Part shown: positions 24,821 through 41,815 of the stretch, in pieces
Numbering within the stretch: the stretch's first letter is position 1
Layout: every line of letters starts with the position of its first letter
DNA from: Marinobacter sp. SS21
GTDB lineage: Bacteria; Pseudomonadota; Gammaproteobacteria; Pseudomonadales; Oleiphilaceae
Assembly (NCBI RefSeq): GCF_028369065.1
Contig: NZ_JAQNDA010000004.1
Coordinates: 62,001 to 126,000 of the forward strand
Length of the DNA: 64,000 bases
Reading direction: 5' to 3'
Notes under the pieces: generated by a model
The model's input: only the letters and a program-made list of their open reading frames with translations
Databases searched by the model: none
Told to the model about the DNA's origin: nothing
Position numbers and translations under genes: made by a program

Positions 24821-24835
24821 ATTGCAATATGCGAA
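24821..24835. promoter_or_regulatory. LuxO-type enhancer dyad upstream of the pilin gene
   Basis: ATTGCAATATGCGAA aligns with the dyad TTTGCAA-N-TTGCAAA of this locus (11 of 14 positions). Its core TTGCA-ATA-TGCGA differs by one base from TTGCA-W3-TGCAA. Its centre is about 120 bp upstream of the predicted sigma54 start point. Confidence 0.6.
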
Positions 24836-24921
24836 ATAAATAGCGACAGCGGAAGCTGGTCTGTGCTTTTTGAATGAATTTTATTTATCTATCATGTTGT
24901 ATTTAATGGATATTTGCGTTT

Positions 24922-24937
24922 TGGCATGGAGTTTGTT
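24922..24937 (+). promoter_or_regulatory. Candidate sigma54 promoter of the pilin gene
   Basis: TGGCAT-ggagt-TTGT has correct -24/-12 spacing. The -24 box is five of six; the -12 GC is GT, a weakness. Predicted start about 24948. The transcript would begin with GGCGTGA (24947-24953), complementary to TCACGCC (24985-24991) just before the ribosome site, so the leader can fold from its first bases. Confidence 0.55.
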
Positions 24938-25005
24938 CGTGTTCTGGGCGTGAGGATAAATTCACGACAATTGACATAACAATTTCACGCCAAGGGGTGT
25001 AATCC

Positions 25006-25386
25006 ATGAAAACAGTCAAACTTTCTCAAGGTTCCAAAAAACAAGCCGGTTTCGTTATGACCACCGAACTGGTTTTGTTATCCACAGTGATGGTCATCGG
25101 CTTGGTTGCCGGAATGGTCACCATGCGAGACTCCCTCACCGCCGAAATGGAAGATGTGGCGGAGGCAATTGGCCATCTCGATCAGACTTACGCCTTCAAT
25201 GGCATCGTTAATGGGGAAAACACGGCTGCCGTAGAGGGATCTGTCTATGGCGATGCTACCGACAGTCTGGCCGGGGATGATGTGGAGTTCTCCTTCGTGG
25301 CAGCAACACCCTTGGAGGGCGCGACCACTGCAGCCAGCCTGGGCTCCAGCGCTTCAAGCAATGCCGGTACCGTATTGGCTCCCTAA
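25006..25386 (+). CDS. Tad/Flp-type major pilin-like protein (atypical)
   Basis: A 126-residue prepilin-like protein. A basic 15-residue leader ends in Gly (KKQAG), followed by a hydrophobic helix FVMTTELVLLSTVMVIGLVAGMVTM. Its glutamate is at +6 after the glycine, not the usual +5. The C-terminal half is acidic and Ala/Gly/Ser-rich. First position in the locus, a sigma54 promoter and a strong downstream stem-loop fit an abundant subunit. The same leader pattern recurs in the protein at 33005. Pilin identity is inferred; sequence similarity to classical Flp is low. Confidence 0.72.
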   Translation: MKTVKLSQGSKKQAGFVMTTELVLLSTVMVIGLVAGMVTMRDSLTAEMEDVAEAIGHLDQTYAFNGIVNGENTAAVEGSVYGDATDSLAGDDVEFSFVAATPLEGATTAASLGSSASSNAGTVLAP

Positions 25387-25398
25387 CCGTAATGGTTG

Positions 25399-25431
25399 CC
25401 TGGCCTGAGGTCTGGTCGGCCTCATGCCAGG
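25399..25431 (+). terminator. Stem-loop between pilin gene and cpaB
   Basis: A 12-bp stem with one mismatch (25399-25410 with 25420-25431) and a 9-nt loop, 13 bp after the pilin stop. There is no T-run, so it is more likely an RNA-stabilising or partial termination element that lets pilin be made in excess over CpaB. Confidence 0.6.
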
Positions 25432-25462
25432 TGAGATGTGCATGGCATAGGAGAGGTGTGAC

Positions 25463-26233
25463 ATGAGGCGGAAGTTGAATGGCAGTACCACCGCAGCAAT
25501 CGGCATGTTTTTGATCTCAGGAGTGTTGGCGAGTGTTTTGGGGGTGCGGCAATACGAACGAGTGACTACCCACGAAGTGCTGGGCATTGTTGGTAGCTGG
25601 CCCGCGGGTACTCAGATTGTCCCCGACATGTTGACACGAGTGCGGATAGACGCCGCCGAACCCGGTATTACCGATCCGAGGCAGGTGCTGGGTAAACAAC
25701 TGTCCCGTAACGTGGAGCATGGCGCAATAATCCGCCCAGCCGAGTTAAGTCGCCCCGTGCGCTCCTGGTTGGCACAGCAGGTTCCGGAGGGAAAGGTGCT
25801 GTACACCTTGGCTCCCCAGTCCGGTTCTATCCCTCACTCACAACTACGTAATGGTGACTTGTTCGATGTGATCGCTACAGGGCCCGCCGGCGTGCGTACG
25901 GTGGCACAGGACGTGCGCTTGATCGGTGTTTTGTCTGCCAGATCTTCGGCCGCAAGTGGCGCAGGCGGCACGGGCCTGATGAGAGCGGCTGCGCATCACC
26001 CGCAAAGGGAGTCGGCGACCTCGTTGGTGGTGGCACTGGCTCCCCAGTTCGTTTATCCGCTGGCCAGCCTCGGACCGCAAGACAAGGTGTCTATTGTCCT
26101 GCACGGGACGTCGGCCCGGCAGGCTGATGAACGACCCAGAATTGAACCACCACCAACTCAACGGCTGGTTGAAGTAGTCACCGGTCTGGAGCGCAAGCTG
26201 ATTCCGGTGAAGATACTGGCCGGCACTCCCTAA
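25463..26233 (+). CDS. cpaB: Flp pilus assembly protein CpaB/RcpC
   Basis: A 256-residue protein with one N-terminal membrane helix and a periplasmic SAF domain (about 42-110, EVLGIVGSWPAGTQIVPDML...GAIIRPAELSRP), then an RcpC/CpaB C-terminal region with NGDLFDVIAT and VVALAPQFVYPLASLGPQDKVSIVL. In Tad systems it works with the outer-membrane secretin. It is separated from the pilin only by the stem-loop. Confidence 0.87.
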   Translation: MRRKLNGSTTAAIGMFLISGVLASVLGVRQYERVTTHEVLGIVGSWPAGTQIVPDMLTRVRIDAAEPGITDPRQVLGKQLSRNVEHGAIIRPAELSRPVRSWLAQQVPEGKVLYTLAPQSGSIPHSQLRNGDLFDVIATGPAGVRTVAQDVRLIGVLSARSSAASGAGGTGLMRAAAHHPQRESATSLVVALAPQFVYPLASLGPQDKVSIVLHGTSARQADERPRIEPPPTQRLVEVVTGLERKLIPVKILAGTP

Positions 26234-26311
26234 TCCCCGCACGACCTATTGCCAGCATTTATTGGGCGAGCGCCTCAAGGCCTCGCTTTTTGTTTTAGCT
26301 TTCGATGCTGC

Positions 26312-26326
26312 GTCGCAAATTGCAAT
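26312..26326. promoter_or_regulatory. LuxO-type enhancer dyad upstream of the OmpA-secretin operon
   Basis: GTCGCAAATTGCAAT has core TCGCA-AAT-TGCAA, one base from TTGCA-W3-TGCAA. Its centre is about 116 bp upstream of the predicted start point of the sigma54 promoter at 26409. Confidence 0.6.
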
Positions 26327-26408
26327 CACTACTGCACGCCCCTTCAGCTCCACCGCCGCCGTTTACATAACATGCTGAAAAATATAGCAATAATTTTGAA
26401 TCCGATTT

Positions 26409-26424
26409 TGGTATGAGTTCTGCA
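26409..26424 (+). promoter_or_regulatory. Candidate sigma54 promoter of the OmpA-cpaC-tadD-cpaF operon
   Basis: TGGTAT-gagtt-CTGCA has GG and GC exactly 10 bp apart. Predicted start about 26435, giving a leader of about 50 nt. A second sequence, TGGCAGAGGGTTGC, lies 20 bp on, but its spacing is one base short. Confidence 0.5.
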
Positions 26425-26486
26425 AGGACTGTGGCAGAGGGTTGCAGTAGCCGCCTTAGATCGAGTCATTGTCCGGGAAGCAAACT

Positions 26487-27248
26487 ATGAACAAGCTGTT
26501 ATGGATACTCCCAGTCCTGCTGAGTGGGTGCGTTACTGCCGATAAGTACTATGAAAGCGTCCCCCAGATTCCAACAACAAAAAACCGTGCCGATGCCCGG
26601 GCTCTCGCCACCACTGGCTTGCGCGCTTCCGATCTGAATCCGGTGGAGCACGAGTTCAGCGATGTGCGCCCGGCTGTGTCACTGCTTGTGCCGGGCTGTG
26701 CGCTGGAGTTTTCTCAGCCGAGTCTCATTCCGCGAGACCCATCGCAGCCGCGCCGCCAGGGTGTTGCTGTAATGGACCGGCCCCATCGCCAAGCGCCGAA
26801 ATACGACTTTCACGCAAGCTATCAGCGTTTTGTACCGCGCCATGGCTTTGCCCAGGGCGGTGCGCAGATTAGCAGTGAACTCGCCCAAGAACTGGACTGG
26901 TTCTATTGGCAAATGTCACCTCAGCCCGACCCCTTGACCCTTCATGTGGTTGGTCACACCAACACGGATGGCTCGCTTGCCTACAATCATCATCTGGGCC
27001 AGCGGCGAGCCCAGGCGGTTGCGGATTACCTGATTCGGAAGGGCGTTGCTCCTCATCGACTCCGGACTTCCAGCGTCGGGGAGTTGATTCCGGTGAGTGG
27101 TGCGGCTCCAGACCAGCTTCCTATTGCCAACCGGCGCGTTGAACTCATCACCTTCGTTTCACCCCCGGAGCAGGCCGCCGGCGGCGAGTACCCATCCTGT
27201 TTTTCCCGTGCCGTCATCGACCGAGATGACGCAGTAGAACTCAAGTAA
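26487..27248 (+). CDS. OmpA-family lipoprotein of the Tad locus
   Basis: A 253-residue precursor with a lipobox (VLLSGC). The C-terminal OmpA-like peptidoglycan-binding domain (about 135-230) shows LTLHVVGHTNTDGSLAYNHHLGQRRAQAVADYLIRKGV and NRRVEL. It probably anchors the secretin complex to the cell wall; OmpA-like genes are common in Tad loci. I chose the ATG at 26487 rather than the TTG at 26469 because it gives a proper lipoprotein signal. It heads the second transcription unit. Confidence 0.85.
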   Translation: MNKLLWILPVLLSGCVTADKYYESVPQIPTTKNRADARALATTGLRASDLNPVEHEFSDVRPAVSLLVPGCALEFSQPSLIPRDPSQPRRQGVAVMDRPHRQAPKYDFHASYQRFVPRHGFAQGGAQISSELAQELDWFYWQMSPQPDPLTLHVVGHTNTDGSLAYNHHLGQRRAQAVADYLIRKGVAPHRLRTSSVGELIPVSGAAPDQLPIANRRVELITFVSPPEQAAGGEYPSCFSRAVIDRDDAVELK

Positions 27249-27258
27249 GGAGACGTCG

Positions 27259-29214
27259 ATGCGCCAGTTAATTCGGTTAATCGGGAGCTATCTGTTGGTC
27301 GCGACCTTCGGGGTTGGCACGGCGTCGGCAGGGGCCAGCCTGAAATATGTCGAAGATGCCAATGGCCGCCACTCCGCCAACCATAGAGAACTTATCCAAT
27401 GGACCCACTCCCGGCTTGTGTTTGATCGTGACCTGGAACGAGTCGCCGTGGGGCAGGACAGAACCCTTGAGGTGGAGGTACTGAATGGGCGCGAGCTGCT
27501 GATGCTGGCCAAAAATGTGGGGCGTACGACCTTGATGGTCTGGTACGCCGGCGGTGACAGTGAAACCTACCTGTTCAGCGTGACAGAGGATTTGTCGGTA
27601 CTCCGCAGCGCCCTGAGCGATATCCACAGTGCCATTCGCATTGATTCGGCACCAGATCGTCCGGCGTTGGTCTTGCGAGGTCGGGTCCCGACGATTGATT
27701 ACAAGGTGGCTGCCGAAACAGCGGCTCGCCATTACCTGGGCGCACGCTCGGGTCCCAGGGCGGGGGGCAATCGGGTTCTTGCCGGTTCGGTGGATAGCAG
27801 TTCGCTGCATTTGCAATCCGCCGTTGCGGGGGCAATGGATCCGTCGTTTCGACTAAACCCCGGCAACGTCCCCAATGACAACCGAATTGCCGTTATTAAT
27901 CTGATTCGGGTGGACACCCTGCCGCTGAGCCTGGAGCAAAAAGTCGCTTCGGCGATCAAAGATCTGGGCGGGCAGAACGTGCGCGTTCGCCGGGTTATTC
28001 GCGGTGAAGTCGCCGACGATACCCGCGACACCTTGATTCTTGAAGGTGAGGTTCAGGATCAGGTCACCTTGACCCGAGTGCTAAGCGTGGTCTCCCGGTT
28101 GCTGCCCAATGCCGACACTGCTAGCGGTGATGCGGATGTTGTCGCGATGACGGATGAAGCCGGCGGCTTGCTGGATGCCCGAACTGCTAGCCGTCAGCGG
28201 AGTGGTCAGTTTGGCGGGCTCAGTCAACTCCAGAATGGAGGTGATTCCTTCAACAATGTGCGGGCCAACATTGCGCGATCGAAGCTGGTCTCGCTGGCCA
28301 ACGGCCGAATTCTGGCTATGTTGGACGTGCTCGATCTCCCCCAGGTAAGAATCTCGGTACAGATTCACGAGGTGAACAGGACGCGTATGCTTCGTTGGCG
28401 TCCCGATCTGTCGGTGGTGACCAACGGCTATTCCGATGCTGGGCTGTTTGCACTTGGCGGACTCGGAACCCTGACCGCAGATAGTTCGCTGGTGGAAAAT
28501 GCCTTGCAGATACTGGGCGGGACGCTGACCAATAACCTGCAGGTGGGCGGTAGCGATCTGGCATTCGATCTGCTGTTCTCACTTATGGAACAGGAGGGCA
28601 TCGCCCGCACTCTGTCCCAGCCAACCCTCACGGTCCTGGCGGGAGAGCAAGCCGTGTTCAGCGTGGGAGGTGAGGTTCCGGTGCCCACGGCTTTCGCACC
28701 GACCGGGCTGAAGTCTGGCGATGAGGTGGCGACCAACACTCCTGGAGTTTTTAGTGGCACCAGTTTCAAGACCTTTGGAGTGGAACTCATCGTCCGGGCA
28801 ATGGTTGATGAGAACGATCGTATCACCCTGGATGTGCATCCAACGATTTCCGCGCCGGATACCTCACTCACTCAGCTGATTTCGGACAGTACCGGCTCAG
28901 CCCTCAATTCCACCGCATTCAACACCCGCAGCATTGCCACGACCACAAGGCTAGGCGATGGTCAGCCGCTCATACTCGGGGGGCTCATCTACCAGGACCA
29001 GTCGGCCCAGAATAGCCAGACGCCGGGTCTACATCGGGTTCCGCTATTGGGGCGACTGGCGGAGGCTACCGCCAATTCGGAACAGGATCGCGAACTGGTG
29101 ATTGTAGTGACTCCCACCTTGGTCAGGGAGTCTGACAGCCGCGTACACCAATGGGCCTTCCCAACACCGTTGGACCTGGTCCGCCGCGCGTTGCCCACTA
29201 AACAAGATGGTTAG
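27259..29214 (+). CDS. cpaC: Tad secretin CpaC/RcpA
   Basis: Outer-membrane channel for the Flp/Tad pilus. The 651-residue precursor has a Sec signal peptide ending near GTASA, an N-terminal pilus-secretin domain (about 45-120, LERVAVGQDRTLEVEVLNGRELLMLAKNVGRTTLMVW), a BON-like region (about 215-285) and the C-terminal secretin domain (about 430-640) with DVHPTISAPD, TTTRLGDGQPLILGGLI and VPLLGRL, ending ELVIVVTPTLV. AAGGAGACG precedes the ATG. The tadD start follows its stop within about 10 bp. Confidence 0.92.
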   Translation: MRQLIRLIGSYLLVATFGVGTASAGASLKYVEDANGRHSANHRELIQWTHSRLVFDRDLERVAVGQDRTLEVEVLNGRELLMLAKNVGRTTLMVWYAGGDSETYLFSVTEDLSVLRSALSDIHSAIRIDSAPDRPALVLRGRVPTIDYKVAAETAARHYLGARSGPRAGGNRVLAGSVDSSSLHLQSAVAGAMDPSFRLNPGNVPNDNRIAVINLIRVDTLPLSLEQKVASAIKDLGGQNVRVRRVIRGEVADDTRDTLILEGEVQDQVTLTRVLSVVSRLLPNADTASGDADVVAMTDEAGGLLDARTASRQRSGQFGGLSQLQNGGDSFNNVRANIARSKLVSLANGRILAMLDVLDLPQVRISVQIHEVNRTRMLRWRPDLSVVTNGYSDAGLFALGGLGTLTADSSLVENALQILGGTLTNNLQVGGSDLAFDLLFSLMEQEGIARTLSQPTLTVLAGEQAVFSVGGEVPVPTAFAPTGLKSGDEVATNTPGVFSGTSFKTFGVELIVRAMVDENDRITLDVHPTISAPDTSLTQLISDSTGSALNSTAFNTRSIATTTRLGDGQPLILGGLIYQDQSAQNSQTPGLHRVPLLGRLAEATANSEQDRELVIVVTPTLVRESDSRVHQWAFPTPLDLVRRALPTKQDG

Positions 29215-29224
29215 GAGTCACACT

Positions 29225-29959
29225 ATGAAACCGGTCATGTTAGCTCTGGTGATGATTGTAGCGTTGGCGGGGTGTGCCACCACCGAACGACGATACAGCG
29301 CAGATGCGCAGGATCCGAACTTGGTGGTTCGGCAGATTCTGAGCCAATGGAAAAAACAGCTGGCGTCGGGGGTGGCCTGCCAGGATGACAATCGCAGCGG
29401 GGACTTGAATGACTGCGATGATTTAATGCGTCGGTTGTTTGCCCTGTATTCGGCTTTCCCGCGTAACGAACGGGTGCAGTTTGCGATAGCCGTTGTCAGC
29501 TATCACACCGGTCGCTACGAGCAGGCAGGAAACTTCCTGGATCAGGTATTGAGGGGCCAGCGTCCGCGTTCGGAGGCTACCGCTTTGAGAGCGCGGATCG
29601 CGCTTGAGCAAGGCAATGTAGAGCGAGCCCGCACTCTGCTGAACGCTCAGATCCAACTTCACCCGATGGATTCGATGCTGCATGAACTGATGGCGTCGGT
29701 CTATTTCATGGATCAGCATACACATCGTGCCTTTGAGGCGTTGGCGGTTTCTCAGCGTCTTGGCGCGCCGCTTTGGCGCATTGCTTACCATCGAGGCTTG
29801 CTGTTTGAGCAGAGCGGCAACCAAGCGGCGGCATGTGAACACTATGCCGAAGCCTTTAGTCGGCGCCCGGATTTCCAAATCGCTCAGGGCCGCTTGGTGG
29901 CGCTTGCCGACCACGTAGGCTGTTTCGAGTTGGCAAAATTGGTTGGAGAACGCTCATGA
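29225..29959 (+). CDS. tadD: TadD-like TPR lipoprotein
   Basis: A 244-residue precursor with a lipoprotein signal (VALAGC) and a helical repeat region resembling three to four TPRs (for example FAIAVVSYHTGRYEQAGNFLDQVLRGQ, ALRARIALEQGNVERARTLLNAQIQLHP). TadD-type lipoproteins assist secretin assembly. The ATG at 29225 with AGGAG was chosen over 29207. Its stop overlaps the cpaF start (ATGA). Confidence 0.83.
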   Translation: MKPVMLALVMIVALAGCATTERRYSADAQDPNLVVRQILSQWKKQLASGVACQDDNRSGDLNDCDDLMRRLFALYSAFPRNERVQFAIAVVSYHTGRYEQAGNFLDQVLRGQRPRSEATALRARIALEQGNVERARTLLNAQIQLHPMDSMLHELMASVYFMDQHTHRAFEALAVSQRLGAPLWRIAYHRGLLFEQSGNQAAACEHYAEAFSRRPDFQIAQGRLVALADHVGCFELAKLVGERS

Positions 29960-31275
29960 CTATGGAATTCGGTATCGACGGGACGGCGGAGTTGTTGCGC
30001 AAGGCTCGACATTGCTTACACCAGCGCCTGATCAACTCTGTGGAGGTCGAGCAGCCATGGATGAACGACCGGGACGAGCTGGACAAGCGAATCCTGAGGT
30101 TGCTGGAGCGATTGCAAGACGAGACCGGAAAGCAGTTCAGCCCTGACCACCGCCGCTTACTCTGTCGCCAGGTGGCTGATGAGGTGACGGGATTTGGACC
30201 GCTGGCGGAGCTTATGGCCGATTCGTCGATCACGGATATTCTGGTAAATGGTGCTAGCAATATTTGGGTTGACCGAGGGGGCTTGCTGCAAAAAACCGAT
30301 CACTCATTCGATGACGAAGCCCACGTCCGGCGATTTGTTGATCGATTTGTTGCCTTTCAGGGCAAGCAGCTAGATTCAAACAATCCCACGGTCGATGCCC
30401 GGCTCCCTGATGGCAGCCGGATGCATGTCGTGATCCCGCCACTGAGCCAGGGAGGCACCGTTATTAGCATCCGGCGTTTTCAAACCTCCCACTCATCGCT
30501 GCACGATTTGGTGGTGGTTGGGATGCTCTCTCCGCCTATGGCCGAGTTCCTGTCACTGGTCGTAAAGGGGGGGGTCAACCTCGTGATTGCCGGTGGCGCT
30601 GGTGCGGGTAAAACGACTCTGCTGAACGCTATGTCCGAGGCGATTCCTGCCCAGGAGCGCATCATCACTATTGAGGAATCCGCAGAGCTGGCGTTGCGCC
30701 ATCCCCATGTGGTGACGTTGGAGAGTCGTCAGGGTAACAGCGAGGGCGTGGGTCGAGTTGATTTGCGTAATCTGCTTCGGAATGCCCTTCGGATGCGTGC
30801 GGACCGCATCATCGTCGGCGAAGTTCGTGGAGAGGAGGTGTTCGACATGCTGCAGGCAATGAATGTCGGGCACGACGGAAGCCTGACGACCGTACATGCC
30901 AATAACCCCCAGCAGGTTCTCAAGCGGCTCGAAACTTTGGCATTACTTGCCGATGGCCGGGCTTCCCGAGCCGCCATCCAGAACATGATCAACGGTGCCG
31001 TCCAGATTATCGTGCAGGTGGCTCGTATGAGTGATGGCCGCCGCCGGGTTACCAGTATCTGTGAGGTAGTGGAACGTAGCGATAGGTCCGAGGTGATTGA
31101 GTTGTTCCGCCTCAGCCGGCGGCAACCGTCCAGCTCGGCGGCAGTTGCCGATAATGGGTATGAGCATGTTCATTGTGAGCGTCGCCCGGAGTGTCTAGCC
31201 ACCATCCAGGCGAAAGAGTACGCGCTGACGGCCGAGTTGAAGGAACTTTGGCACATCACGGAGCCAGACAGATGA
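29956..31275 (+). CDS. cpaF: Tad pilus assembly ATPase CpaF/TadA
   Basis: Hexameric secretion ATPase that powers pilus assembly. The 439-residue protein has an N-terminal domain with FGPLAELMADSSITDILVNG, Walker A GGAGAGKTT at 213-221, the Asp box IITIEESAEL, Walker B region ADRIIVGEVRGEEVFDMLQAMNVGHDGSLTTVHAN with the His-box, and a C-terminal CpaF-type segment. It is coupled to tadD and tadB by ATGA overlaps. This is the most secure Tad assignment in the locus. Confidence 0.95.
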   Translation: MTMEFGIDGTAELLRKARHCLHQRLINSVEVEQPWMNDRDELDKRILRLLERLQDETGKQFSPDHRRLLCRQVADEVTGFGPLAELMADSSITDILVNGASNIWVDRGGLLQKTDHSFDDEAHVRRFVDRFVAFQGKQLDSNNPTVDARLPDGSRMHVVIPPLSQGGTVISIRRFQTSHSSLHDLVVVGMLSPPMAEFLSLVVKGGVNLVIAGGAGAGKTTLLNAMSEAIPAQERIITIEESAELALRHPHVVTLESRQGNSEGVGRVDLRNLLRNALRMRADRIIVGEVRGEEVFDMLQAMNVGHDGSLTTVHANNPQQVLKRLETLALLADGRASRAAIQNMINGAVQIIVQVARMSDGRRRVTSICEVVERSDRSEVIELFRLSRRQPSSSAAVADNGYEHVHCERRPECLATIQAKEYALTAELKELWHITEPDR

Positions 31276-32965: not shown

Positions 32966-33004
32966 GCCGCTATCAAATCTACGCCACAGAGTGGAGCCAA
33001 CGAC

Positions 33005-34371: not shown

Positions 34372-36465
34372 TTATTCCACTGGGCCTGGTTGGAAGCGGG
34401 GTTCAATTTCCTCGGGCTGACAGGGCCTACCGGTGAGATAGCCTTGAATAAGATGACAGCCGCCTTCTCTCAGGTATTCCAGTTGCTCTGGGGTTTCCAC
34501 GCCTTCGGCGACGATGGCCAATTGCATCGCCTTCGCCAGGGCAATGATGGCATCCACAACCGCATAGTTGCCGTTTGCGCTTTCGATGTCCGTCACAAAG
34601 CAACGATCGATCTTCAGTATGTCCACTGGCAGTTGCTTGAGCTGACTCAGGGACGAGAAACCTGTGCCAAAGTCGTCCAGCGCAATGCGTAAACCATCGG
34701 CACGAAGTGTTTGCAGGTACGCCAGTGTCATGTCCTGGTTGCCCATGAAGACACTTTCGGTGACCTCCAGTTCAATTTCGTGGGCCCGGGCCCCGGTCTG
34801 CGCCAAGATTGCATGCACTTTTTGATCAAACTGGGATTGGTTGAGCTGATGCCCCGACACATTGACGGCGATAGGAACCGTTTGAAAGCCGGACTCGCGC
34901 CAGGCAACCGCTTGTCGGCATGCGGCTCGCAATACATAGTCACCTAGGGCGAGGATCTGGCCAGTCTCCTCTGCAAGAGGAATGAACTCGCCGGGGGACA
35001 CGAACCCCAGGCTCGGAGAATGCCAACGAAGCAGTGCCTCCATGCCGTGCAGCGCACCGCTTTGCGCGCAGACTTTCGGTTGGTACACCAATGTCAGCTC
35101 TTCCCGCAGTATCGCGGTCCTCAGAGCCGACTCCATGGTCAGGGCTCGATTCGCCGCACGTTCGAGTTCCGGGCTGTAGTCACCACGTCGGGTTTCCTGG
35201 TTGATATTGATGGTTTTCGCCGCCAGAGCGCTCTGCTGTATCAGCTTATCCACGGCCACGTCACCGGCTTTACAGGTTGCAATGCCAATTCGCGGCTGGA
35301 ACGACAAGGAATAATTTGCAAGTTCTACAGTTTGAGCAAATGCGGAAACGATGAGGTGACGCAGTCGTTCCGTCAGATCCATCTGGGAGGGCAAGGGCGC
35401 CAAAATATGGAACTCACCTTTCCCGGTGCTGGCCAGGAATAACCCGGCGGTTGTGTTGCGCTTCGCAAGCTCGCTATCAACACGTTTCATCAAGTGGCGT
35501 AGCAATTGGGCAATGTGGCTGCGGGCATCATTGGTGACTCGACGCCCCACACTGTCCTCAAGGCTGTCCAGATTATCGAGGCAAAGCCTGATCAGAGCCA
35601 GTTCCAGACCTGGATGCTCGTTTGAGAATTTTTGTAGCCGTTGGATCAGGTGAGCCTGATTGGGCAGTCCTGTGATGGGGTCGGTCAGAGACAGTGTTTC
35701 AATTTGCTGTTTCTGTGTTTCCTGCTCGGTTATGTCCCGGACGATGCACAGCCGCTCGTTGCCCGCTGAAGTGGCAAAGCGCAGTTCAAAAAACATATCA
35801 ATTCCAGCGTGTTCTACCCGAATCATTCGCTCATTGACCGCTTCAATGGGGGCCGCATAGATCGCCTCCAGCTTTGCGCCGATGCTCAGCTTGTCCAGCA
35901 GAGGGAGCGGTAAGTCATTGCTGAGTTTGGTGTCGGTGAGCCGATTGGCGGCGTCGAAGCGCAGGATACTGTCCGGTAGCGCAGACAACAGCGCTTGTTG
36001 TTCCGACCGTTTTTGTTCCAACGCTTGGTGGTTTCTATGTGCCTGAACAATATGATGAATCCGTTGCCTCAGCAGGGTGGTCCGAAAAGGTTTGGTAATG
36101 AAGTCATTGGCGCCTGCGGCCAAAGAGGCCTGGATGGATTCGAGGTCATCACTACCGGTCAACATAATAATGGGCGTGTTGGCGTTCAAATCACCGTCGC
36201 GGATTAACCTGCAGGCTTTGAATCCATCCATTCCTGGCATTCGGACATCGAGCAGCACTATGTCAAAGAGTGTCTTGGTCAGGGCATTTATGCCTGTTTC
36301 CCCATCGGCAGCTTCAGAAATCCTGATATCTTCACAAGCCAAGGCTTCGCGCAGGTGCATACGGCATAGCGTGTCATCGTCAATCACTAAAACCTCGAGG
36401 GAGGCGGCGTTGCTGTTGGATCCAGCGTTGTTGCGCAGCTGAGGTCTGACTCTGGCGTCTTGCAT
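34372..36465 (-). CDS. Response regulator with PAS, degenerate GGDEF and EAL domains (c-di-GMP phosphodiesterase)
   Basis: A 697-residue regulator. Receiver domain about 24-145 with phosphoacceptor D73 in VLLDVRMPG; PAS-like domain about 155-250; GGDEF domain with active site GKGEF (348-352), hence unlikely to make c-di-GMP; EAL domain about 445-690 with EAL (476-478), LEVTES, DDFGTG (597-602) and AEGVET (653-658), all intact. I therefore predict a phosphorylation-controlled phosphodiesterase. It is divergent from the hybrid kinase and shares its enhancer region, so the kinase HPt may also feed this receiver. Confidence 0.88.
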   Translation of the reverse strand: MQDARVRPQLRNNAGSNSNAASLEVLVIDDDTLCRMHLREALACEDIRISEAADGETGINALTKTLFDIVLLDVRMPGMDGFKACRLIRDGDLNANTPIIMLTGSDDLESIQASLAAGANDFITKPFRTTLLRQRIHHIVQAHRNHQALEQKRSEQQALLSALPDSILRFDAANRLTDTKLSNDLPLPLLDKLSIGAKLEAIYAAPIEAVNERMIRVEHAGIDMFFELRFATSAGNERLCIVRDITEQETQKQQIETLSLTDPITGLPNQAHLIQRLQKFSNEHPGLELALIRLCLDNLDSLEDSVGRRVTNDARSHIAQLLRHLMKRVDSELAKRNTTAGLFLASTGKGEFHILAPLPSQMDLTERLRHLIVSAFAQTVELANYSLSFQPRIGIATCKAGDVAVDKLIQQSALAAKTININQETRRGDYSPELERAANRALTMESALRTAILREELTLVYQPKVCAQSGALHGMEALLRWHSPSLGFVSPGEFIPLAEETGQILALGDYVLRAACRQAVAWRESGFQTVPIAVNVSGHQLNQSQFDQKVHAILAQTGARAHEIELEVTESVFMGNQDMTLAYLQTLRADGLRIALDDFGTGFSSLSQLKQLPVDILKIDRCFVTDIESANGNYAVVDAIIALAKAMQLAIVAEGVETPEQLEYLREGGCHLIQGYLTGRPCQPEEIEPRFQPGPVE

Positions 36466-36506
36466 GTGGCACCTGTATTCAGCGTGGGTCGGTTGCCGCT
36501 GCTCGC

Positions 36507-36522
36507 AGCCAAATGTGTGCCA
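36507..36522 (-). promoter_or_regulatory. Candidate sigma54 promoter of the phosphodiesterase gene
   Basis: Minus strand TGGCAC-acatt-TGGC: perfect -24 box, conserved GC at -12 and correct spacing. Predicted start about 36496, a leader of about 31 nt. Confidence 0.6.
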
Positions 36523-36609: not shown

Positions 36610-36655
36610 TTTGCAAATTGCAAATGGCACCAGGGTTTTCTTTGCAAAATGCAAA
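36610..36655. promoter_or_regulatory. Paired LuxO-type enhancer dyads in the divergent control region
   Basis: TTTGCAAATTGCAAA (36610-36624) is a perfect 7-1-7 dyad, and TTTGCAAAATGCAAA (36641-36655) differs by one base. Both contain an exact TTGCA-W3-TGCAA. They are 31 bp apart, three helical turns, and lie about 97-152 bp from the predicted start points on both sides, so they could serve both divergent promoters. Confidence 0.75.
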
Positions 36656-36718
36656 TGATATCGAGCTTCAACTACATGGGTTTACTCCAACTGGTTGTAA
36701 AATAAAACTAAAATAATG

Positions 36719-36734
36719 TGGTCCTTATTTTGCT
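36719..36734 (+). promoter_or_regulatory. Candidate sigma54 promoter of the hybrid kinase gene
   Basis: TGGTCC-ttatt-TTGCT has full -12 box TTGC and correct GG-to-GC spacing. Predicted start about 36745. Confidence 0.6.
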
Positions 36735-36748
36735 TTGCAAATTTCAAA
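36734..36748. promoter_or_regulatory. LuxO-type dyad overlapping the kinase promoter start point
   Basis: TTTGCAAATTTCAAA, one base off the perfect dyad. It overlaps the -12 end and the predicted +1, a position expected for repression rather than activation. It may give negative feedback on the kinase gene. Confidence 0.5.
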
Positions 36749-36829
36749 TAGAAATATGTGGGGCGCGGCCATGAACTTTGATCATGAAAGTTGTTGTATT
36801 CGCCGACAAGGGCATGGGAGTGATTCGTT

Positions 36830-39800
36830 ATGACCTTTCGCGCCCAGACGGTTGTGGTCGCTTTGGTGGCGACAGTTGTCCTGCTTGGGCTGGTGGCGAC
36901 CAGCCTGTATATCCTTAAGGCGTCGAACGAAATCGCTTTTGAGCGGGAGCTGGACGCGACCGCGGAATGGTTGGCGGTATCGGCGCGTGACGCCGTGCTG
37001 TCCGCCGATATCGCGAATTTGGAAGCGTTGGGGGTGGAGTACATGCGGCGATCCGGTAGCCAGTATCTGCGGTTGTCGGATCGATCCAGTGCCCTGGTTG
37101 AACTGGGCTTGCTGGCGAGACCGGAAGCGCGGATGGCGGCCGACATTTCCATAGCCAGCGTTGATGATGGCATTTATGACGTGCGCAAATTGATTTATGC
37201 CGAAGGGATTCCTATTGGCCTGCTCGAAACCGGGGTATCGACCCAAAAGCTTGATTCGTTAATCTTGACCGCGTCGTTTCGCTTGGTTGGACTTGTTGTG
37301 CTGGGTGTCGGTCTTATTGCGTTACTGACGTGGGCATTGGGGCGCTATCTGATCCGTGATTTGGCTGAACTGCGAGATCGGCTGGCAAGTGTGGCCAGCG
37401 GTGACAGCCATTCCAAACTCCAGTTGGCGGGTGGTGGTGGAGTCTTAGCCGGTGTGGTCGACGCTTTTAACCTAATGACGGCTGAACTGCGGGCTCGCGA
37501 AGTTAAGCAGATGGATGTGCTGACCCAGGTGACCGACCTGGTGGAGCAATTGAAGGGGCGGGAAAAAGACCTCAATCTTCTGCTGGACACCGTCTCGGAT
37601 GGGGTCATAGTGACTGATGCCGGCTTATCGATCATCGATATGAACACCGTGGCGCAACACAACCTCCATGTGAAGCTTGAAAAGCGCAAGGGCAAATCCT
37701 TGGCGAAGCTGCTGGTCGACCCGACCGACGTGGACCGCATCAAACAGGCTTTGGCGCAAGCCCTGGAGTCGGCATCTGGCCGCCTACGCATCGGTTTCGG
37801 CAAGATACTGCTGTCGGCACGGGAGCATGCCCCGGTCTGGGTGGACCTCAACTGCGGCCTGCTGCGAACCGAGCAAGAGACCCAGCTAGTCTTTTCATTT
37901 CGAGACCTGACCCATGAACTGGAAAATTTTTCAGAGATGGAGCGTCGTGATCTGCTCAACAAGGCGGTAAGTGTCGCCAGCGAAGACGGCATTCTGGTGC
38001 TCGATTATGATAACCGGGTGGTGGATGTCAATCCGAGCTTCAGCGCCATTTTCGGGCTCACTCGGGAGAACGTTCTGTTCAGTCAGATTTCGGAGGTGCT
38101 TAAGCCCCAGCCGGGGGAGGTTTCCATTGCGGAATTGGTTGCAGAAGCTACCGAAATGGGTGACCAGAGCCGGATGCGGCAAAAATACCTGAAACTGAGT
38201 CTGGGGGATGACAAGGTGGTTCCCGTGGGCATCAGTGGATTCCATTTCATGTGGTCCGGTCGAGGCTATACCACCTTGATGATTCACGACTTACGCGAGC
38301 AGAGCCAGACCGAGCGGAGCCTGGTTGAAGCAAAAGAGATTGCTGAACGGGCGAGTCAAGCCAAGTCTGATTTCCTGTCCCATGTAACCCATGAAATCCG
38401 CAGCCCCCTTAATTCGGTGATCGGCTGTTTCGAGCTGATTTCGGACACTGGCATGGATGCGAGGCAAAAAACGTTGATTGGTGCTGCGCGCAAGTCCGCC
38501 GATGCGTTGTTATCCCTTGTCAATAACATCCTGGATTTTGCGCGCATCGAAAAAGGCACCATCGAACTGGAAAACGAGGCCTTTCAAATAGTTGATGTCG
38601 TTGAGAGTGTGGTGGACATCAAATCGCTTCAGCCGATGAACGGCGAAATTTCGCTCTCTCTGATCGTAGATCCTGCTGTCGACCTGGAATGCGTCGGCGC
38701 GGCGGTGAGACTCCGGCAGGTACTGCTGAACCTCCTGGATAACGCCCTCAAATTTACCATGGACGGGGGGGTTACGCTTGAAGTTCACCCTTCGGGCAAG
38801 GACGTTGAGTTTGTGGTGGAGGATACCGGTATTGGCATTCCCAAAGCGAAACAGGCGATCATATTTGATGCGTTTACCCAAGTGGACAGCACCGACGCAA
38901 CCCGGCACGGCGGTAGCGGGCTCGGCTTGACGATATCTCGGGAGTTGGTGGGCCTGATGGGGGGCACACTGGAACTCAATAGCGAGGTAGGCCTGGGCAC
39001 CAGAATGTCGCTAAAAGTGCCACTGAGTTGTCAGCGGCCGACCACCGCCAGGCCCCGAGTGCCTGCCGGTGGCCAGAGCGCATGGGTTGTCTATGGTAAA
39101 GCGGGCAGTGGCTGTTCATTGGTGCGACAGTTGAGGTTGTTGGGACTGGACGCTCATGCGGCGGAAGACCTGGAGTCATTACCGGCGCAGGGCTCCGCAC
39201 CCGATTGGCTATTTGTTGAAGGCAATGGGCCGATTGAGTCGAACTCTCTGCCTTCCGGATACCTGGCACACACGCGAATTGTTGGCATAGTGACCGCCAA
39301 AGAGGCGCTGAGTGAGGAGCACTGTCACGCTGAGATCAGTGACCTGTTGACAACGCCAGTGCGCTACAGCGATTTGCTGTCGGTGTTGACGGACTGCGAT
39401 GCCAAGCGACGAGACGTCGCATCAGTTGACGAGGACCGATTGGAGCGCGCGCGCTCAGACGAGTTGCCCAAGGCTAGCATCTTGTTGGCCGAGGACAGTG
39501 AGGCGAACCAAATGGTTGCGGTGACAATGCTGGAAAATGCCGGGTACCGGGTCACGGTTGCGATCAACGGCGTCGAGGCCCTGGCGGCATTGGAAAAGGC
39601 TCGGTTTGATCTGGTGCTGATGGATTTGCGGATGCCCAGGATGGATGGGCTTGAGGCAACCCGCAGGATCCGGAAATCTGGCAGTGAATATGCCTCAGTG
39701 CCGATCGTGGCGCTGACCGCAAATGCCACCCGGGAAGATCAGGAACGTTGCAAGGCGGCCGGAATGAACGGCTTTATCGGTAAACCCTTCCGACTCGAAC

Positions 39801-40213
39801 GCCTGCTGGAGACCATAGACCAGCTGTGCGGAAAAGGGGCTTCTAGCGAAGTTGAAAGCCCCAATCCCCAGTTGCCGTTGATGGACCCGTCGGCCTTGCA
39901 GCGCTTGCGAGCCGAAACCTCGGTGTCGGTGGTGGCACGGATGACCGAGGTTTTTGTCGTAGAACTCAAGCGTCGCCATAAGAGTTTGCTGGAGGCCATG
40001 GAAGCCGAAGACTGTCATCGCGTGGAAGACGAAGCACATACCATGAAAAGCAATGCGGCGACGTTCGGTGCGGTGTGTCTTGCCAACCTGGCCCGAGAAA
40101 TCGAGAAATCCTGCAAGCGCATGGATCGTGACAGGGTGTGCGAACTGTTGCCGGAGTTGGAGGAAGTGCTTACTCAAACCATCGCCGAGTATGAACTAAC
40201 AATCAGGGCCTAA
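36830..40213 (+). CDS. Hybrid sensor histidine kinase with receiver and HPt domains
   Basis: A 1127-residue membrane kinase. TM1 about 8-30, a periplasmic sensor to about 145, TM2 about 147-172, HAMP about 173-228, two PAS domains (about 247-360 and 375-490), HisKA with H521 in SHVTHEIRSPLN, and HATPase with LLDNALKFT, DTGIGI and GGSGLGL. A divergent receiver-like region follows (about 755-870, no clear Asp), then a true receiver with D932 in VLMDLRMP and an HPt with H1070 in DEAHTMKSNAATFGA. The path H521-D932-H1070 would end on the adjacent LuxO-like regulator. In Vibrio, the separate protein LuxU plays the HPt role. The ligand is unknown. Confidence 0.92.
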   Translation: MTFRAQTVVVALVATVVLLGLVATSLYILKASNEIAFERELDATAEWLAVSARDAVLSADIANLEALGVEYMRRSGSQYLRLSDRSSALVELGLLARPEARMAADISIASVDDGIYDVRKLIYAEGIPIGLLETGVSTQKLDSLILTASFRLVGLVVLGVGLIALLTWALGRYLIRDLAELRDRLASVASGDSHSKLQLAGGGGVLAGVVDAFNLMTAELRAREVKQMDVLTQVTDLVEQLKGREKDLNLLLDTVSDGVIVTDAGLSIIDMNTVAQHNLHVKLEKRKGKSLAKLLVDPTDVDRIKQALAQALESASGRLRIGFGKILLSAREHAPVWVDLNCGLLRTEQETQLVFSFRDLTHELENFSEMERRDLLNKAVSVASEDGILVLDYDNRVVDVNPSFSAIFGLTRENVLFSQISEVLKPQPGEVSIAELVAEATEMGDQSRMRQKYLKLSLGDDKVVPVGISGFHFMWSGRGYTTLMIHDLREQSQTERSLVEAKEIAERASQAKSDFLSHVTHEIRSPLNSVIGCFELISDTGMDARQKTLIGAARKSADALLSLVNNILDFARIEKGTIELENEAFQIVDVVESVVDIKSLQPMNGEISLSLIVDPAVDLECVGAAVRLRQVLLNLLDNALKFTMDGGVTLEVHPSGKDVEFVVEDTGIGIPKAKQAIIFDAFTQVDSTDATRHGGSGLGLTISRELVGLMGGTLELNSEVGLGTRMSLKVPLSCQRPTTARPRVPAGGQSAWVVYGKAGSGCSLVRQLRLLGLDAHAAEDLESLPAQGSAPDWLFVEGNGPIESNSLPSGYLAHTRIVGIVTAKEALSEEHCHAEISDLLTTPVRYSDLLSVLTDCDAKRRDVASVDEDRLERARSDELPKASILLAEDSEANQMVAVTMLENAGYRVTVAINGVEALAALEKARFDLVLMDLRMPRMDGLEATRRIRKSGSEYASVPIVALTANATREDQERCKAAGMNGFIGKPFRLERLLETIDQLCGKGASSEVESPNPQLPLMDPSALQRLRAETSVSVVARMTEVFVVELKRRHKSLLEAMEAEDCHRVEDEAHTMKSNAATFGAVCLANLAREIEKSCKRMDRDRVCELLPELEEVLTQTIAEYELTIRA

Positions 40214-40235
40214 GAGTGATTAGGGGTTTTATGTT

Positions 40236-41669
40236 ATGGAGACTGTAGCTGTGACTGGCCGAGTCCTCATTGTCGAGGACAGCGAGCTACTGGGAATGGT
40301 TTACCGCGAATACCTGGTGGCCGGTGGCTACGATGTGGTCCACGTTGAGAACGGAAAGCAGGCCCTGGTGCTGCTTGAGGAAGGCGGGTTCGATTTACTG
40401 GTGCTGGATCTGTCGCTTCCAGACATGCATGGATTTGAGGTGCTCAAGTCCGTGCAGGAACAGCAATGGCCAGTGTCCACTATTGTAGCGACCGGTCACG
40501 ATACGGCTGAAACCGCCATGGAGGCTATTCGCCTGGGGGCAGCGGATTTTTTGACCAAGCCGGTGGATGCCAGTCGCTTGATGGTGACCGTGGGCAATGT
40601 GCTCAAGCAACACCGGCTCGAGCACATCGTCAGCTCCTACCAGCAACAGATCGAGCGAGATCATTTCGAGGGCCTGATTGGCGCTTCGCCGGTTATGCAA
40701 AGTGTGTATCGAATCATCGAAACCGCGGCGCCCAGCCAGGCTAGCATCTTCATTACTGGCGAAAGCGGTACCGGAAAAGAGTTGTGCGCCGAGGCCATTC
40801 ATCGGCAGAGCGGTCGGGCTGGTGGCCCCCTGATTACCCTCAATTGCGCTGCGATTCCAAAGGACTTGATGGAGAGCGAGATTTTCGGTCATGTGAAAGG
40901 CGCTTTCACCGGCGCCCATACCGATCGGGAAGGGGCGGCGAGCATGGCGGACGGCGGCACGTTGTTTCTCGATGAGTTGTGCGAGATGGATTTGGATCTG
41001 CAGAGCAAATTGCTGCGCTTCATTCAGAGCGGCACGTTTCAGCGTGTTGGTTCTGGCGTAACCAAAAAAGTGGATATCCGCTTTGTGTGTGCGACGAATC
41101 GCGATCCTTTGGCCGAGGTCAAGGCCGGCCGATTTCGCGAGGACCTGTATTACCGGCTCCATGTCATCCCCCTGCGGTTGCCGCCGCTGCGGGAGCGAGG
41201 CGAAGACATTCTTTTGATCGCGGGGCGGATGCTGGAAGCTCTGTCGAAAAAGAACGGCAAGCGCTTCGAAGGTCTTGCGCCAGAAGTGGAGCGCTTAATG
41301 CTGAATTATCCGTGGCCGGGCAATGTCCGCGAGCTGGAGAATTCCATTTTGAATATGGTGGTGATGGGGGATGGGCGCCAAGTAACGGAAGATATGGTGC
41401 CGCCAAGCCTCAAGCATGGAATAGACCGGCGCACGATGACGCAGGACGAGCCGGATTTGGCGTTGCTTGGTGACTCCGATGGCTTGGTGGCGTCGCGTAC
41501 GGCAAGCAGTATGGCGGATATCAAGCCATTGTGGCTGGAGGAAAAGCGCATTATCGAGCGGGCTATCGCGCTCTGCGATGGAAATGTGCCGCGGGCTGCG
41601 GCTTTACTGGAGGTCAGCGCCTCAACCGTATACCGAAAACGCCAGAGTTGGGCCGCGGAAGGTTTGTAG
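40236..41669 (+). CDS. LuxO-like sigma54-dependent response regulator
   Basis: A 477-residue NtrC-type activator: receiver (about 5-120) with D58 in LLVLDLSLPDMHGFEVL; AAA+ domain with Walker A GESGTGKE from residue 175, the sigma54-contact motif GAFTGA at 222-227 and Walker B GGTLFLDE ending D246-E247; Fis-type helix-turn-helix at the C-terminus (PRAAALLEVSASTVYRKRQSW). From memory, LDELCEMDLDLQSKLLRFIQ and the region around PLWLEEKRIIERAIALCDGNVPRAAA match Vibrio LuxO almost residue for residue, closer than to NtrC, FlrC or AlgB. The flanking DNA carries LuxO-type sites. It follows the kinase by 22 bp. Target assignment is inferred. Confidence 0.9.
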   Translation: METVAVTGRVLIVEDSELLGMVYREYLVAGGYDVVHVENGKQALVLLEEGGFDLLVLDLSLPDMHGFEVLKSVQEQQWPVSTIVATGHDTAETAMEAIRLGAADFLTKPVDASRLMVTVGNVLKQHRLEHIVSSYQQQIERDHFEGLIGASPVMQSVYRIIETAAPSQASIFITGESGTGKELCAEAIHRQSGRAGGPLITLNCAAIPKDLMESEIFGHVKGAFTGAHTDREGAASMADGGTLFLDELCEMDLDLQSKLLRFIQSGTFQRVGSGVTKKVDIRFVCATNRDPLAEVKAGRFREDLYYRLHVIPLRLPPLRERGEDILLIAGRMLEALSKKNGKRFEGLAPEVERLMLNYPWPGNVRELENSILNMVVMGDGRQVTEDMVPPSLKHGIDRRTMTQDEPDLALLGDSDGLVASRTASSMADIKPLWLEEKRIIERAIALCDGNVPRAAALLEVSASTVYRKRQSWAAEGL

Positions 41670-41680
41670 GCCGATTTTGC

Positions 41681-41695
41681 TTTGCAATTTGCAAA
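41681..41695. promoter_or_regulatory. LuxO-type enhancer dyad upstream of the CHASE gene
   Basis: TTTGCAATTTGCAAA is a perfect 7-1-7 dyad with exact TTGCA-ATT-TGCAA. It starts 12 bp after the luxO-like stop, and its centre is about 138 bp before the predicted start point of the promoter at 41800. Confidence 0.7.
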
Positions 41696-41758
41696 GCGAA
41701 TTGACTCGCAGGCTGCGTGCTGAAAGCGGTTGTGTTTTGGACGATTGCGTCGCGTTAC

Positions 41759-41771
41759 CAATCAATTGATT
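41759..41771 (-). promoter_or_regulatory. Consensus IHF site between enhancer and sigma54 promoter
   Basis: Minus strand AATCAATTGATTG fits WATCAANNNNTTR at every position. It lies between the dyad at 41681 and the promoter at 41800, where IHF bends DNA in many sigma54 systems. Confidence 0.5.
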
Positions 41772-41799
41772 TCATGGGTTTTATCTTGGGTTGTCAAAT

Positions 41800-41815
41800 G
41801 GGCTCAATGTTTGCT
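41800..41815 (+). promoter_or_regulatory. Candidate sigma54 promoter of the CHASE gene
   Basis: GGGCTC-aatgt-TTGCT: GG and GC are 10 bp apart and the TTGC box is complete. Predicted start about 41826, 21 nt before the ATG with AGGAG between them. Confidence 0.55.

What the first reader, a model, noticed from the sequence alone, without database searches (positions are those of the whole stretch)
24821..41815. A LuxO-like sigma54 regulon wired to a Tad pilus locus
Seen: the regulator at 40236-41669 has receiver, GAFTGA-bearing AAA+ and Fis-type HTH domains and reads like Vibrio LuxO. Six dyads of the form TTTGCAA-N-TTGCAAA (24821, 26312, 36610, 36641, 36734, 41681) lie only in the intergenic regions of this locus; three hold an exact TTGCA-W3-TGCAA and three are one base off. 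Five -24/-12 elements lie next to them, with upstream dyads centred about 97-152 bp from the predicted start points. Known: Vibrio LuxO binds TTGCA-W3-TGCAA and activates sigma54 promoters of Qrr sRNAs. Inferred: here the same DNA code drives Tad pilus, phosphodiesterase, kinase and CHASE genes. I know of no described LuxO regulon of this kind.
Basis: partly seen in the sequence, partly recalled or inferred. Interest (0 to 1): 0.93.

Follow-up and report, generated by a model that had tools for sequence, protein, structure and literature searches.

The report
LuxO-type switch for a Tad pilus
In what is likely a Marinobacter, six exact or one-letter-off copies of the DNA site recognised by LuxO, the quorum-sensing switch of cholera bacteria, sit between the genes of a predicted adhesive (Tad) pilus cluster that also encodes a LuxO-like regulator, and related bacteria keep most of these sites in place, so the regulator would likely turn the pilus on directly: a LuxO-type circuit apparently used for surface attachment instead of quorum-sensing RNAs.

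Summary
All six dyads are where stated. The whole 3.91-Mb genome holds nine sites within one mismatch of TTGCA-W3-TGCAA; all three exact ones and three of six one-off ones are in this locus. The exact ones are letter for letter sites under V. cholerae LuxO ChIP-seq peaks. Orthologous loci keep dyads and -24/-12 elements before the same genes; at the pilin promoter the dyad-to-start distance is 120, 120, 118 and 119 bp in four genomes whose aligned upstream DNA is only 37-53% identical, though a fifth lacks that dyad. In eight Tad-bearing genomes 22 of 25 exact sites lie in the Tad-regulator cluster. The regulator is LuxO-type but not the Vibrio LuxO equivalog (625 bits, cut-off 800); its phosphotransfer domain is fused to the kinase, and no LuxS was found. 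Best reading: a phosphorelay-driven sigma54 regulon for a Tad pilus plus c-di-GMP and sensor genes. In other Marinobacter genomes a related module with the same code faces exopolysaccharide genes. New variant of a known kind, nearest to SypG; binding and activation are untested.

The parts
24821..24835 (+). Dyad 1 (one mismatch), upstream of the prepilin-like gene
24922..24937 (+). -24/-12 element TGGCATGGAGTTTGTT, facing the prepilin-like gene
   Evidence: score 12/15, GT in place of GC
25006..25386 (+). small prepilin-like protein, 126 aa
   Evidence: no Pfam hit; named by position and an N-terminal prepilin-like motif by eye
25463..26233 (+). CpaB/RcpC-like protein, 256 aa
   Evidence: no Pfam hit; named by position and sequence by eye; conserved in the Tad loci
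26312..26326 (+). Dyad 2 (one mismatch), upstream of the OmpA-secretin operon
26409..26424 (+). -24/-12 element TGGTATGAGTTCTGCA
   Evidence: score 12/15
26487..27248 (+). OmpA-family lipoprotein (ORF opens at TTG 26469; ATG 26487 preferred)
   Evidence: PF00691; start by eye
27259..29214 (+). RcpA/CpaC-like secretin
   Evidence: PF00263 and PF13629
29207..29959 (+). TPR protein (TadD-like by position)
   Evidence: TPR families
29956..31275 (+). TadA-type ATPase
   Evidence: PF00437; TIGR03819 357 bits, cut-off 373
31191..32147 (+). TadB-like membrane protein (ORF start not settled)
   Evidence: PF00482
32030..32965 (+). TadC-like membrane protein (ORF start not settled)
   Evidence: PF00482
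33005..34159 (+). large prepilin-like protein, 384 aa
   Evidence: no Pfam hit; conserved in the Tad loci
34372..36465 (-). receiver - GGDEF (weak) - EAL protein, predicted c-di-GMP phosphodiesterase
   Evidence: PF00072, PF00990, PF00563; EAL and DDFGTG motifs kept by eye
36507..36522 (-). -24/-12 element TGGCACACATTTGGCT, facing the EAL gene
   Evidence: score 14/15
36610..36624 (+). Dyad 3, exact
36641..36655 (+). Dyad 4, exact, 31 bp from dyad 3; the pair spacing is kept in G886
36719..36734 (+). -24/-12 element TGGTCCTTATTTTGCT, facing the kinase-regulator operon
   Evidence: score 13/15; no counterpart with a good score in G886
36734..36748 (+). Dyad 5 (one mismatch), abutting the -12 box and overlapping the predicted start; possible autoregulatory site (speculative)
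   Evidence: position
36830..40213 (+). hybrid sensor kinase with PAS, HisKA, HATPase, receiver and C-terminal Hpt
40236..41669 (+). LuxO-type sigma54 activator
41681..41695 (+). Dyad 6, exact
41800..41815 (+). -24/-12 element GGGCTCAATGTTTGCT, facing the CHASE gene
   Evidence: score 13/15
41847..43889 (+). CHASE sensor protein; no kinase domain recognised (ORF opens at TTG 41841; ATG 41847 preferred)
   Evidence: PF03924 alone; start by eye

Best explanation
The locus encodes a LuxO-type activator and carries exact or one-off LuxO sites in front of its pilus and signalling genes, and the activator, once phosphorylated, would likely bind these sites and work on sigma54 polymerase at nearby -24/-12 promoters, which is predicted to switch on the Tad pilus operons together with a c-di-GMP phosphodiesterase, its own kinase operon and a CHASE sensor. 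Step by step: the hybrid kinase senses an unknown signal and passes phosphate through its receiver to its own C-terminal Hpt and on to the regulator (inferred from domains and gene order). The phosphorylated regulator binds the dyads (inferred from the DNA code and the recognition helix). Sigma54 promoters roughly 90-155 bp away fire (inferred from the elements and their conserved spacing). Dyad 5, on the predicted start site of the kinase-regulator operon, may cap its expression (speculative). The EAL protein would lower c-di-GMP as feedback on attachment (speculative).
For: Specificity: 3 of 3 exact and 3 of 6 one-off sites of the genome are here; in eight Tad-bearing genomes 22 of 25 exact sites are in the Tad-regulator cluster; in the genus, 11 genomes with a regulator of this type hold 15 exact sites, 13 of them within about 21 kb of it, against 20 sites in the other 113 genomes. 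Control: 15 exact dyads in Tad loci of seven genomes against a mean of 0.05 for 59 permuted half-sites. 48 of 51 dyads intergenic, with 10.9% of bases intergenic. Spacing 120/120/118/119 bp at the pilin promoter and 121/152 against 123/154 at the EAL promoter with flanks 37-53% identical. With dyads masked, 31 of 50 dyad-bearing upstream regions have a -24/-12 score of 13 or more against 17 of 111 others; the wrong strand shows no significant difference. Eight of eleven LuxO residues critical for DNA binding are identical and two are I-to-V. The exact 13-mers equal V. cholerae LuxO ChIP-seq sites. One RpoN in the genome.
Against: No binding or expression data. The five -24/-12 elements are individually modest. 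L429, critical in V. cholerae LuxO, is Arg here. Not every promoter keeps its dyad: G844 lacks one at its pilin, G831's CHASE region gave no sensible reading, and G886 has no good -24/-12 match facing its kinase operon. The Oceanobacter locus L087 has Tad genes and a regulator of this type but no dyad within one mismatch, although its sequence starts inside the secretin. Same-genus G785, G852 and G853 have the regulator and no exact site, and G034 has one away from it. One-off sites are less specific than exact ones: G013 has 15 and G844 17 genome-wide, with 8 and 10 for the reversed pattern.
Confidence: 0.82

Rival explanations
1. The dyads are real regulatory sites, but another factor of the cell binds them; the neighbouring LuxO-type protein acts elsewhere.
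For: No binding data. Some genomes have a regulator of this type without exact dyads near it (G785, G852, G853, G034).
Against: The code is that of LuxO, the recognition helix is nearly that of LuxO, 24 of 80 loci around LuxO-type genes hold an exact dyad against a mean of 0.17 dyads for permuted half-sites, and in Tad loci dyads and a LuxO-type gene occur together in all eight genomes examined, in G338 and G181 across contig ends.
Confidence: 0.09
2. It is an ordinary Vibrio-type quorum-sensing LuxO circuit (LuxU, Qrr RNAs, autoinducers) that happens to lie beside a Tad cluster.
For: LuxO-type protein and LuxO-type sites.
Against: Equivalog cut-off not reached; Hpt fused to the kinase; no Rfam match in 20000-46000; no LuxS; all six dyads face protein genes. 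Qrr RNAs and LuxU elsewhere in the genome were not searched for.
Confidence: 0.05
3. The dyads are chance or structural palindromes without a regulatory role.
For: Only 13 bp, three with a mismatch; one exact site elsewhere (G886, L184:7335) sits in a long inverted repeat with no -24/-12 element.
Against: Shuffles and permuted half-sites, intergenic placement, conserved position and spacing with diverged flanks.
Confidence: 0.02

Closest known systems
Vibrio LuxO - Qrr quorum-sensing circuit
   Same: Same domain plan, 54-58% identity to Vibrio/Aliivibrio LuxO proteins in five loci, same 13-bp enhancer code, sigma54 promoters, linker glycine kept.
   Different: V. cholerae LuxO has 5 ChIP-seq peaks, 4 of them at qrr genes (PMC10328515, passages); here the sites face protein genes of a pilus and signalling proteins. 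Hpt is fused to the kinase, no LuxS, and the equivalog cut-off is not met.
SypG of Vibrio fischeri (syp polysaccharide regulon)
   Same: LuxO-group sigma54 activator of surface-structure genes, fed by a hybrid kinase with a C-terminal Hpt (SypF) (PMC10162802, passages).
   Different: Cargo is a polysaccharide, not a pilus; its reported site TTCTCANNNTGMDWN is not above chance in this window. SypG itself was not compared by sequence here.
Pectobacterium Flp/Tad pilus with its neighbouring two-component system
   Same: A two-component system encoded beside a Flp/Tad cluster promotes its expression (PMC3767616, passages).
   Different: The response regulator there has an OmpR-type domain and is not a sigma54 activator.
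BrfA/RpoN control of Fap amyloid in Pseudomonas fluorescens PF07
   Same: A neighbouring RpoN-dependent Fis-family regulator needed for a surface fibre (PMC9207406, passages).
   Different: Different fibre; the passages give no binding code and no relation to LuxO.

Membership tests
Vibrio LuxO (quorum-sensing equivalog) | NCBIfam NF041946 score above its cut-off of 800 bits | tested here: not met
   625 bits; V. pacinii LuxO scores 856
Vibrio LuxO (quorum-sensing equivalog) | activates qrr small RNA genes | tested here: inconclusive
   no Rfam match in window 20000-46000; the rest of the genome was not searched
Vibrio LuxO (quorum-sensing equivalog) | fed by a separate phosphotransfer protein LuxU | tested here: inconclusive
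   an Hpt domain is fused to the neighbouring kinase; a separate LuxU was not searched for
LuxO-type sigma54 activators (broad group, my term) | receiver, AAA+ with GAFTGA, Fis-type HTH | tested here: met
LuxO-type sigma54 activators (broad group, my term) | best match to LuxO rather than to NtrC and kin | tested here: met
   LuxO 625 bits, next model 382; best solved structure LuxO 5ep0
LuxO-type sigma54 activators (broad group, my term) | enhancer TTGCA-W3-TGCAA near its gene and before sigma54 promoters | tested here: met
LuxO-type sigma54 activators (broad group, my term) | linker glycine that blocks the ATPase site in unphosphorylated LuxO | tested here: met
   Gly146 by alignment with 5ep0; replaced in three Pseudomonas orthologs and in five Marinobacter relatives, so not universal
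SypG | binding site TTCTCANNNTGMDWN | tested here: not met
   3 matches at up to 1 mismatch, 6.3 expected
SypG | lies in a syp polysaccharide locus | tested here: not met
   neighbours are Tad, EAL, kinase and CHASE genes
SypG | falls in a SypG clade | not tested
   no identified SypG sequence was in the tree
Tad pilus locus | TadA ATPase, two TadB/C-type membrane proteins, RcpA/CpaC-type secretin | tested here: met
   TIGR03819 itself is 16 bits under its cut-off
Tad pilus locus | Flp-type prepilin | tested here: inconclusive
   two small or large prepilin-like proteins by eye, no Pfam hit
Tad pilus locus | TadZ and the prepilin peptidase TadV | tested here: inconclusive
   not among the nine Tad-region proteins scanned; the rest of the genome was not searched

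The most novel reading that the evidence does not exclude
TTGCA-W3-TGCAA is the old, shared enhancer code of a large family of LuxO-type sigma54 activators whose main job is to switch surface structures on and off (Tad pili, exopolysaccharide, secreted adhesins); the quorum-sensing LuxO-Qrr circuit of Vibrio is one specialised offshoot. The DNA code stays fixed while the controlled cargo is swapped, even between species of one genus.
Probability: 0.5. Interest if true: 0.8.

Novelty: new variant of a known kind. Interest (0 to 1): 0.66.

Why it matters
LuxO is known as the low-cell-density switch of Vibrio quorum sensing, with a very small regulon made up mostly of Qrr RNA genes. Here the same binding code and a close relative of the protein are predicted to control a pilus directly. 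That makes it testable whether the surface-attachment regulon or the quorum-sensing one came first, and it offers a candidate regulator for a Tad pilus in a likely Marinobacter, a genus studied for biofilms on oil (recalled). Because exact sites are so rare in these genomes, candidate regulons can be read off the sequence.

Tried and rejected
Ordinary Vibrio LuxO circuit: not filed as such because the equivalog cut-off fails, the Hpt is fused, and neither an Rfam match at the locus nor LuxS was found. SypG motif: not above chance. Plasmid origin of the Tad cluster: the secretin has no match in 72,556 plasmid records at E 1e-60. Spread of this Tad secretin: 4 of 124 genomes of the genus (E 1e-60), 4 of 390 drawn from the order (E 1e-40) and 1 of 369 drawn from the class (E 1e-60), the window's own genome counted each time. 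A resolved place of the regulator in the tree: not obtained; its node is an open fork. The first -24/-12 test was open to bias because the dyad itself contains TTGCA; I repeated it with dyads masked and with the wrong strand as control. The second exact site of G886 precedes a BapA/RTX-type adhesin gene but sits in a long inverted repeat without a -24/-12 element, so I did not count it as a target. Autorepression of LuxO in Vibrio as a precedent for dyad 5: searched, not confirmed in the passages I read, so it stays speculative. No structure was predicted.
Full report
What is there. The window lies in a 3.91-Mb genome (28 contigs). Its genus is Marinobacter by inference: contigs of same-genus genomes G013 and G844 have the lengths (104,464 and 4,762,857) of contigs that carry proteins named Marinobacter litoralis and Marinobacter sp. 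M3C. From 25006 to 34159 runs a compact Tad cluster: small prepilin-like protein, CpaB-like protein, OmpA lipoprotein, secretin, TPR protein, TadA, TadB, TadC and a large prepilin-like protein (the prepilin and CpaB names rest on position and reading by eye). Then come a receiver-GGDEF-EAL gene on the minus strand, a hybrid kinase with a C-terminal Hpt, the LuxO-type activator, and a CHASE protein.

Six sites within one mismatch of TTGCAWWWTGCAA lie at the stated places, 0.28 expected. The whole genome has nine such places; all three exact and three of the six one-off ones are in this locus, and the pattern read backwards gives five. The three exact 13-mers are, on one strand or the other, identical to the sites listed under LuxO ChIP-seq peaks at qrr1, qrr2, qrr3 and qrr4 of V. 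cholerae (PMC10328515, passages); a weak fifth peak sits on a site two bases off the consensus, so one-off sites are plausible targets.

More than chance, and not a quirk of composition. I replaced the half-site by every other arrangement of its five letters. In 80 loci around LuxO-type genes from named genomes (the best 80 of 590 found; several are close relatives) the true half-site gives 32 exact dyads and the other 59 average 0.17; in the Tad loci of seven genomes it gives 15 against 0.05, and within one mismatch 38 against a median of 1. In the Tad loci of eight genomes 48 of 51 dyads are intergenic although 10.9% of bases are. Of 124 genomes of the genus, 27 hold an exact site, 35 sites in all; the 11 genomes with a regulator of this type (E 1e-140) hold 15, 13 of them within about 21 kb of it, and the other 113 hold 20. 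Three of the 11 (G785, G852, G853) hold none, and G034 and G831 each have one away from the regulator. With one mismatch allowed the sites are less specific: 15 in G013 and 17 in G844 genome-wide, against 8 and 10 for the reversed pattern, and in G290 the reversed pattern is even commoner, 20 against 13.

Conservation. The Tad secretin has orthologs in 4 of 124 genomes of the genus, own included, in G886 of another genus of the family, which carries the M. fonticola regulator, and in three genomes of another family. In G886 dyads precede the pilin, the OmpA operon, the divergent EAL and sensor-kinase genes and the CHASE gene; the divergent pair is 31 bp apart as in the window. The distance from dyad centre to predicted start is 120, 120, 118 and 119 at the pilin promoter (G000, G886, G831, G013); 116, 116 and 114 at the OmpA promoter (G000, G886, G831; 93 in G844, 91 and 135 in G013); and 121/152 against 123/154 at the EAL promoter (G000, G886; 92-105 for the nearest dyad within one mismatch in the other five loci measured). 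The aligned upstream DNA, motifs included, is only 37-53% identical. Exceptions: G844 has no dyad within two mismatches at its pilin promoter; the CHASE upstream region of G831 gave no sensible reading with the automatic start; three of the four pilin promoters with a dyad depart from GC in the -12 box. In G321 6 of 6 and in G181 6 of 7 exact sites lie in the cluster that holds both Tad genes and regulator; the G181 cluster is split over two contigs whose ends share the cpaB-tadA stretch, and in G338 it is split over two contig ends. Altogether 22 of 25 exact sites in eight Tad-bearing genomes are in the cluster; the three others are in G886, G831 and G181. Against this, the Oceanobacter locus L087 has Tad genes and a regulator of this type but no dyad within one mismatch; its sequence begins inside the secretin, so the front promoters are not seen.

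Promoters. With the dyads masked, 31 of 50 upstream regions that have a dyad contain a -24/-12 match scoring 13 or more of 15, against 17 of 111 without one (Mann-Whitney p = 7e-12; without the window's own genome 29 of 45 against 16 of 107, p = 6e-11). On the wrong strand the difference is gone (5 of 50 against 2 of 111, p = 0.29). Gene starts were called automatically and the scoring consensus is recalled. In the window itself the five elements are individually modest. The genome has one RpoN. As a positive control, the five Vibrio and Aliivibrio loci with an exact dyad beside the regulator gene all show a -24/-12 match (13 or 14 of 15) 59-70 bp from the dyad on the side away from luxO, where qrr1 lies in Vibrio (arrangement of qrr1 and luxO from PMC8043402, passages).

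The regulator. It scores 625 bits with the LuxO model and 382 with the next model; V. pacinii LuxO scores 856, the cut-off being 800. Closest solved structure: LuxO 5ep0, which is V. angustum LuxO. Identity to five Vibrio and Aliivibrio LuxO proteins is 54-58%, more than the 47-48% between LuxO and SypG in the two rows I saw of PMC10162802 (passages). Of the eleven DNA-binding residues found critical in V. cholerae LuxO (PMC11407668, outline and the first part of the Results), eight are identical, two are I-to-V and one is L-to-R (residue mapping mine). The linker glycine that blocks the ATPase site in LuxO (PMC4878744, passages) is kept as Gly146 by alignment, also in M. fonticola, but not in three Pseudomonas orthologs or five Marinobacter relatives, so linker inhibition is not general in this group. 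The tree of 75 proteins leaves the query on an open fork with Vibrio, Aeromonas, Pseudoalteromonas and Marinobacter members; the regulators of G013 and G844 are only 55-56% identical to the window's although their Tad loci are orthologous, so the DNA code has outlived a deep split or a swap of the regulator.

Cargo swap. In G011, G029 and G813 a related regulator, kinase and EAL module carries the same dyads. In G011 the neighbours are a receiver-SpoIIE phosphatase, an anti-sigma-type kinase, a STAS protein, a flippase, polysaccharide export and a sugar transferase, which resembles the syp locus; for G029 and G813 I have only gene order and partial matches. After exact dyads in Pseudoalteromonas, Thalassotalea, Colwellia, Methylococcaceae and other loci, ten proteins scanned gave 3 STAS, 2 hexapeptide transferases, 1 sugar transferase, 1 weak pyruvyl transferase, 1 GTP cyclohydrolase and 2 without a hit. 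In G013 dyads also precede the outer-membrane gene of a type I secretion cluster next to an RTX/Ig-like adhesin and an HD-domain gene. This is the basis of the bold reading; it is a small and partly related sample.

What it is. A predicted local sigma54 regulon: LuxO-type activator plus LuxO code, wired to a Tad pilus and to c-di-GMP and sensor genes. Shown: sites, specificity, conservation, spacing, domains. Inferred: binding, phosphorelay, activation. Speculative: autorepression at dyad 5 and the c-di-GMP feedback. I did not find it in the searches (listings, plus passages of the papers cited; an open-licence library that lacks most subscription papers). Pectobacterium's Tad pilus is under an OmpR-type system (PMC3767616, passages). 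SypG is the nearest described case, so this is a new variant of a known kind.

Noticed in passing
window 41847-43889: The CHASE protein matches no kinase domain in Pfam, and by eye the phospho-accepting histidine region looks lost, whereas a CHASE relative in G011 has HisKA, HATPase and receiver domains: perhaps a sensor that has lost its kinase.
   Followed up: partly
L125 and L145 (G011); L127 and L146 (G029); L167 and L168 (G813): Related regulator, kinase and EAL modules with LuxO-type dyads lie beside what in G011 looks like a syp-type exopolysaccharide cluster instead of a Tad cluster.
   Followed up: partly
L165:1438-2349 (G886); L125:14566-15471 (G011): A phosphonate-type periplasmic binding protein (PF12974) precedes the hybrid kinase in relatives, reminiscent of LuxP-LuxQ (recalled); the window has no such gene directly before the kinase.
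   Followed up: partly
L184:7335 (G886): The second exact LuxO-type site of this genome lies about 80 bp before a 2040-residue BapA/RTX-type adhesin gene, but inside a long inverted repeat and without a -24/-12 match.
   Followed up: partly
L141:4458-15054 (G013): Next to the Tad cluster lie an RTX/Ig-like adhesin, type I secretion genes and an HD-domain gene, with dyads before the outer-membrane gene and the HD gene.
   Followed up: partly
G831:C85:7375-8796: The regulator copy beside the Tad genes has one in-frame TAG in this 76%-complete draft; another regulator of this type lies on contig 221.
   Followed up: no
G321 locus L120: Seven tandem copies of the small prepilin-like gene lie between cpaB and the TPR gene, some preceded by dyads.
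   Followed up: no
window 20100-23846: A 1248-residue DUF1631 - GGDEF - EAL protein lies just before the locus.
   Followed up: no
L087 (Oceanobacter): Tad genes and a regulator of this type side by side, but no dyad within one mismatch in the stretch held.
   Followed up: partly
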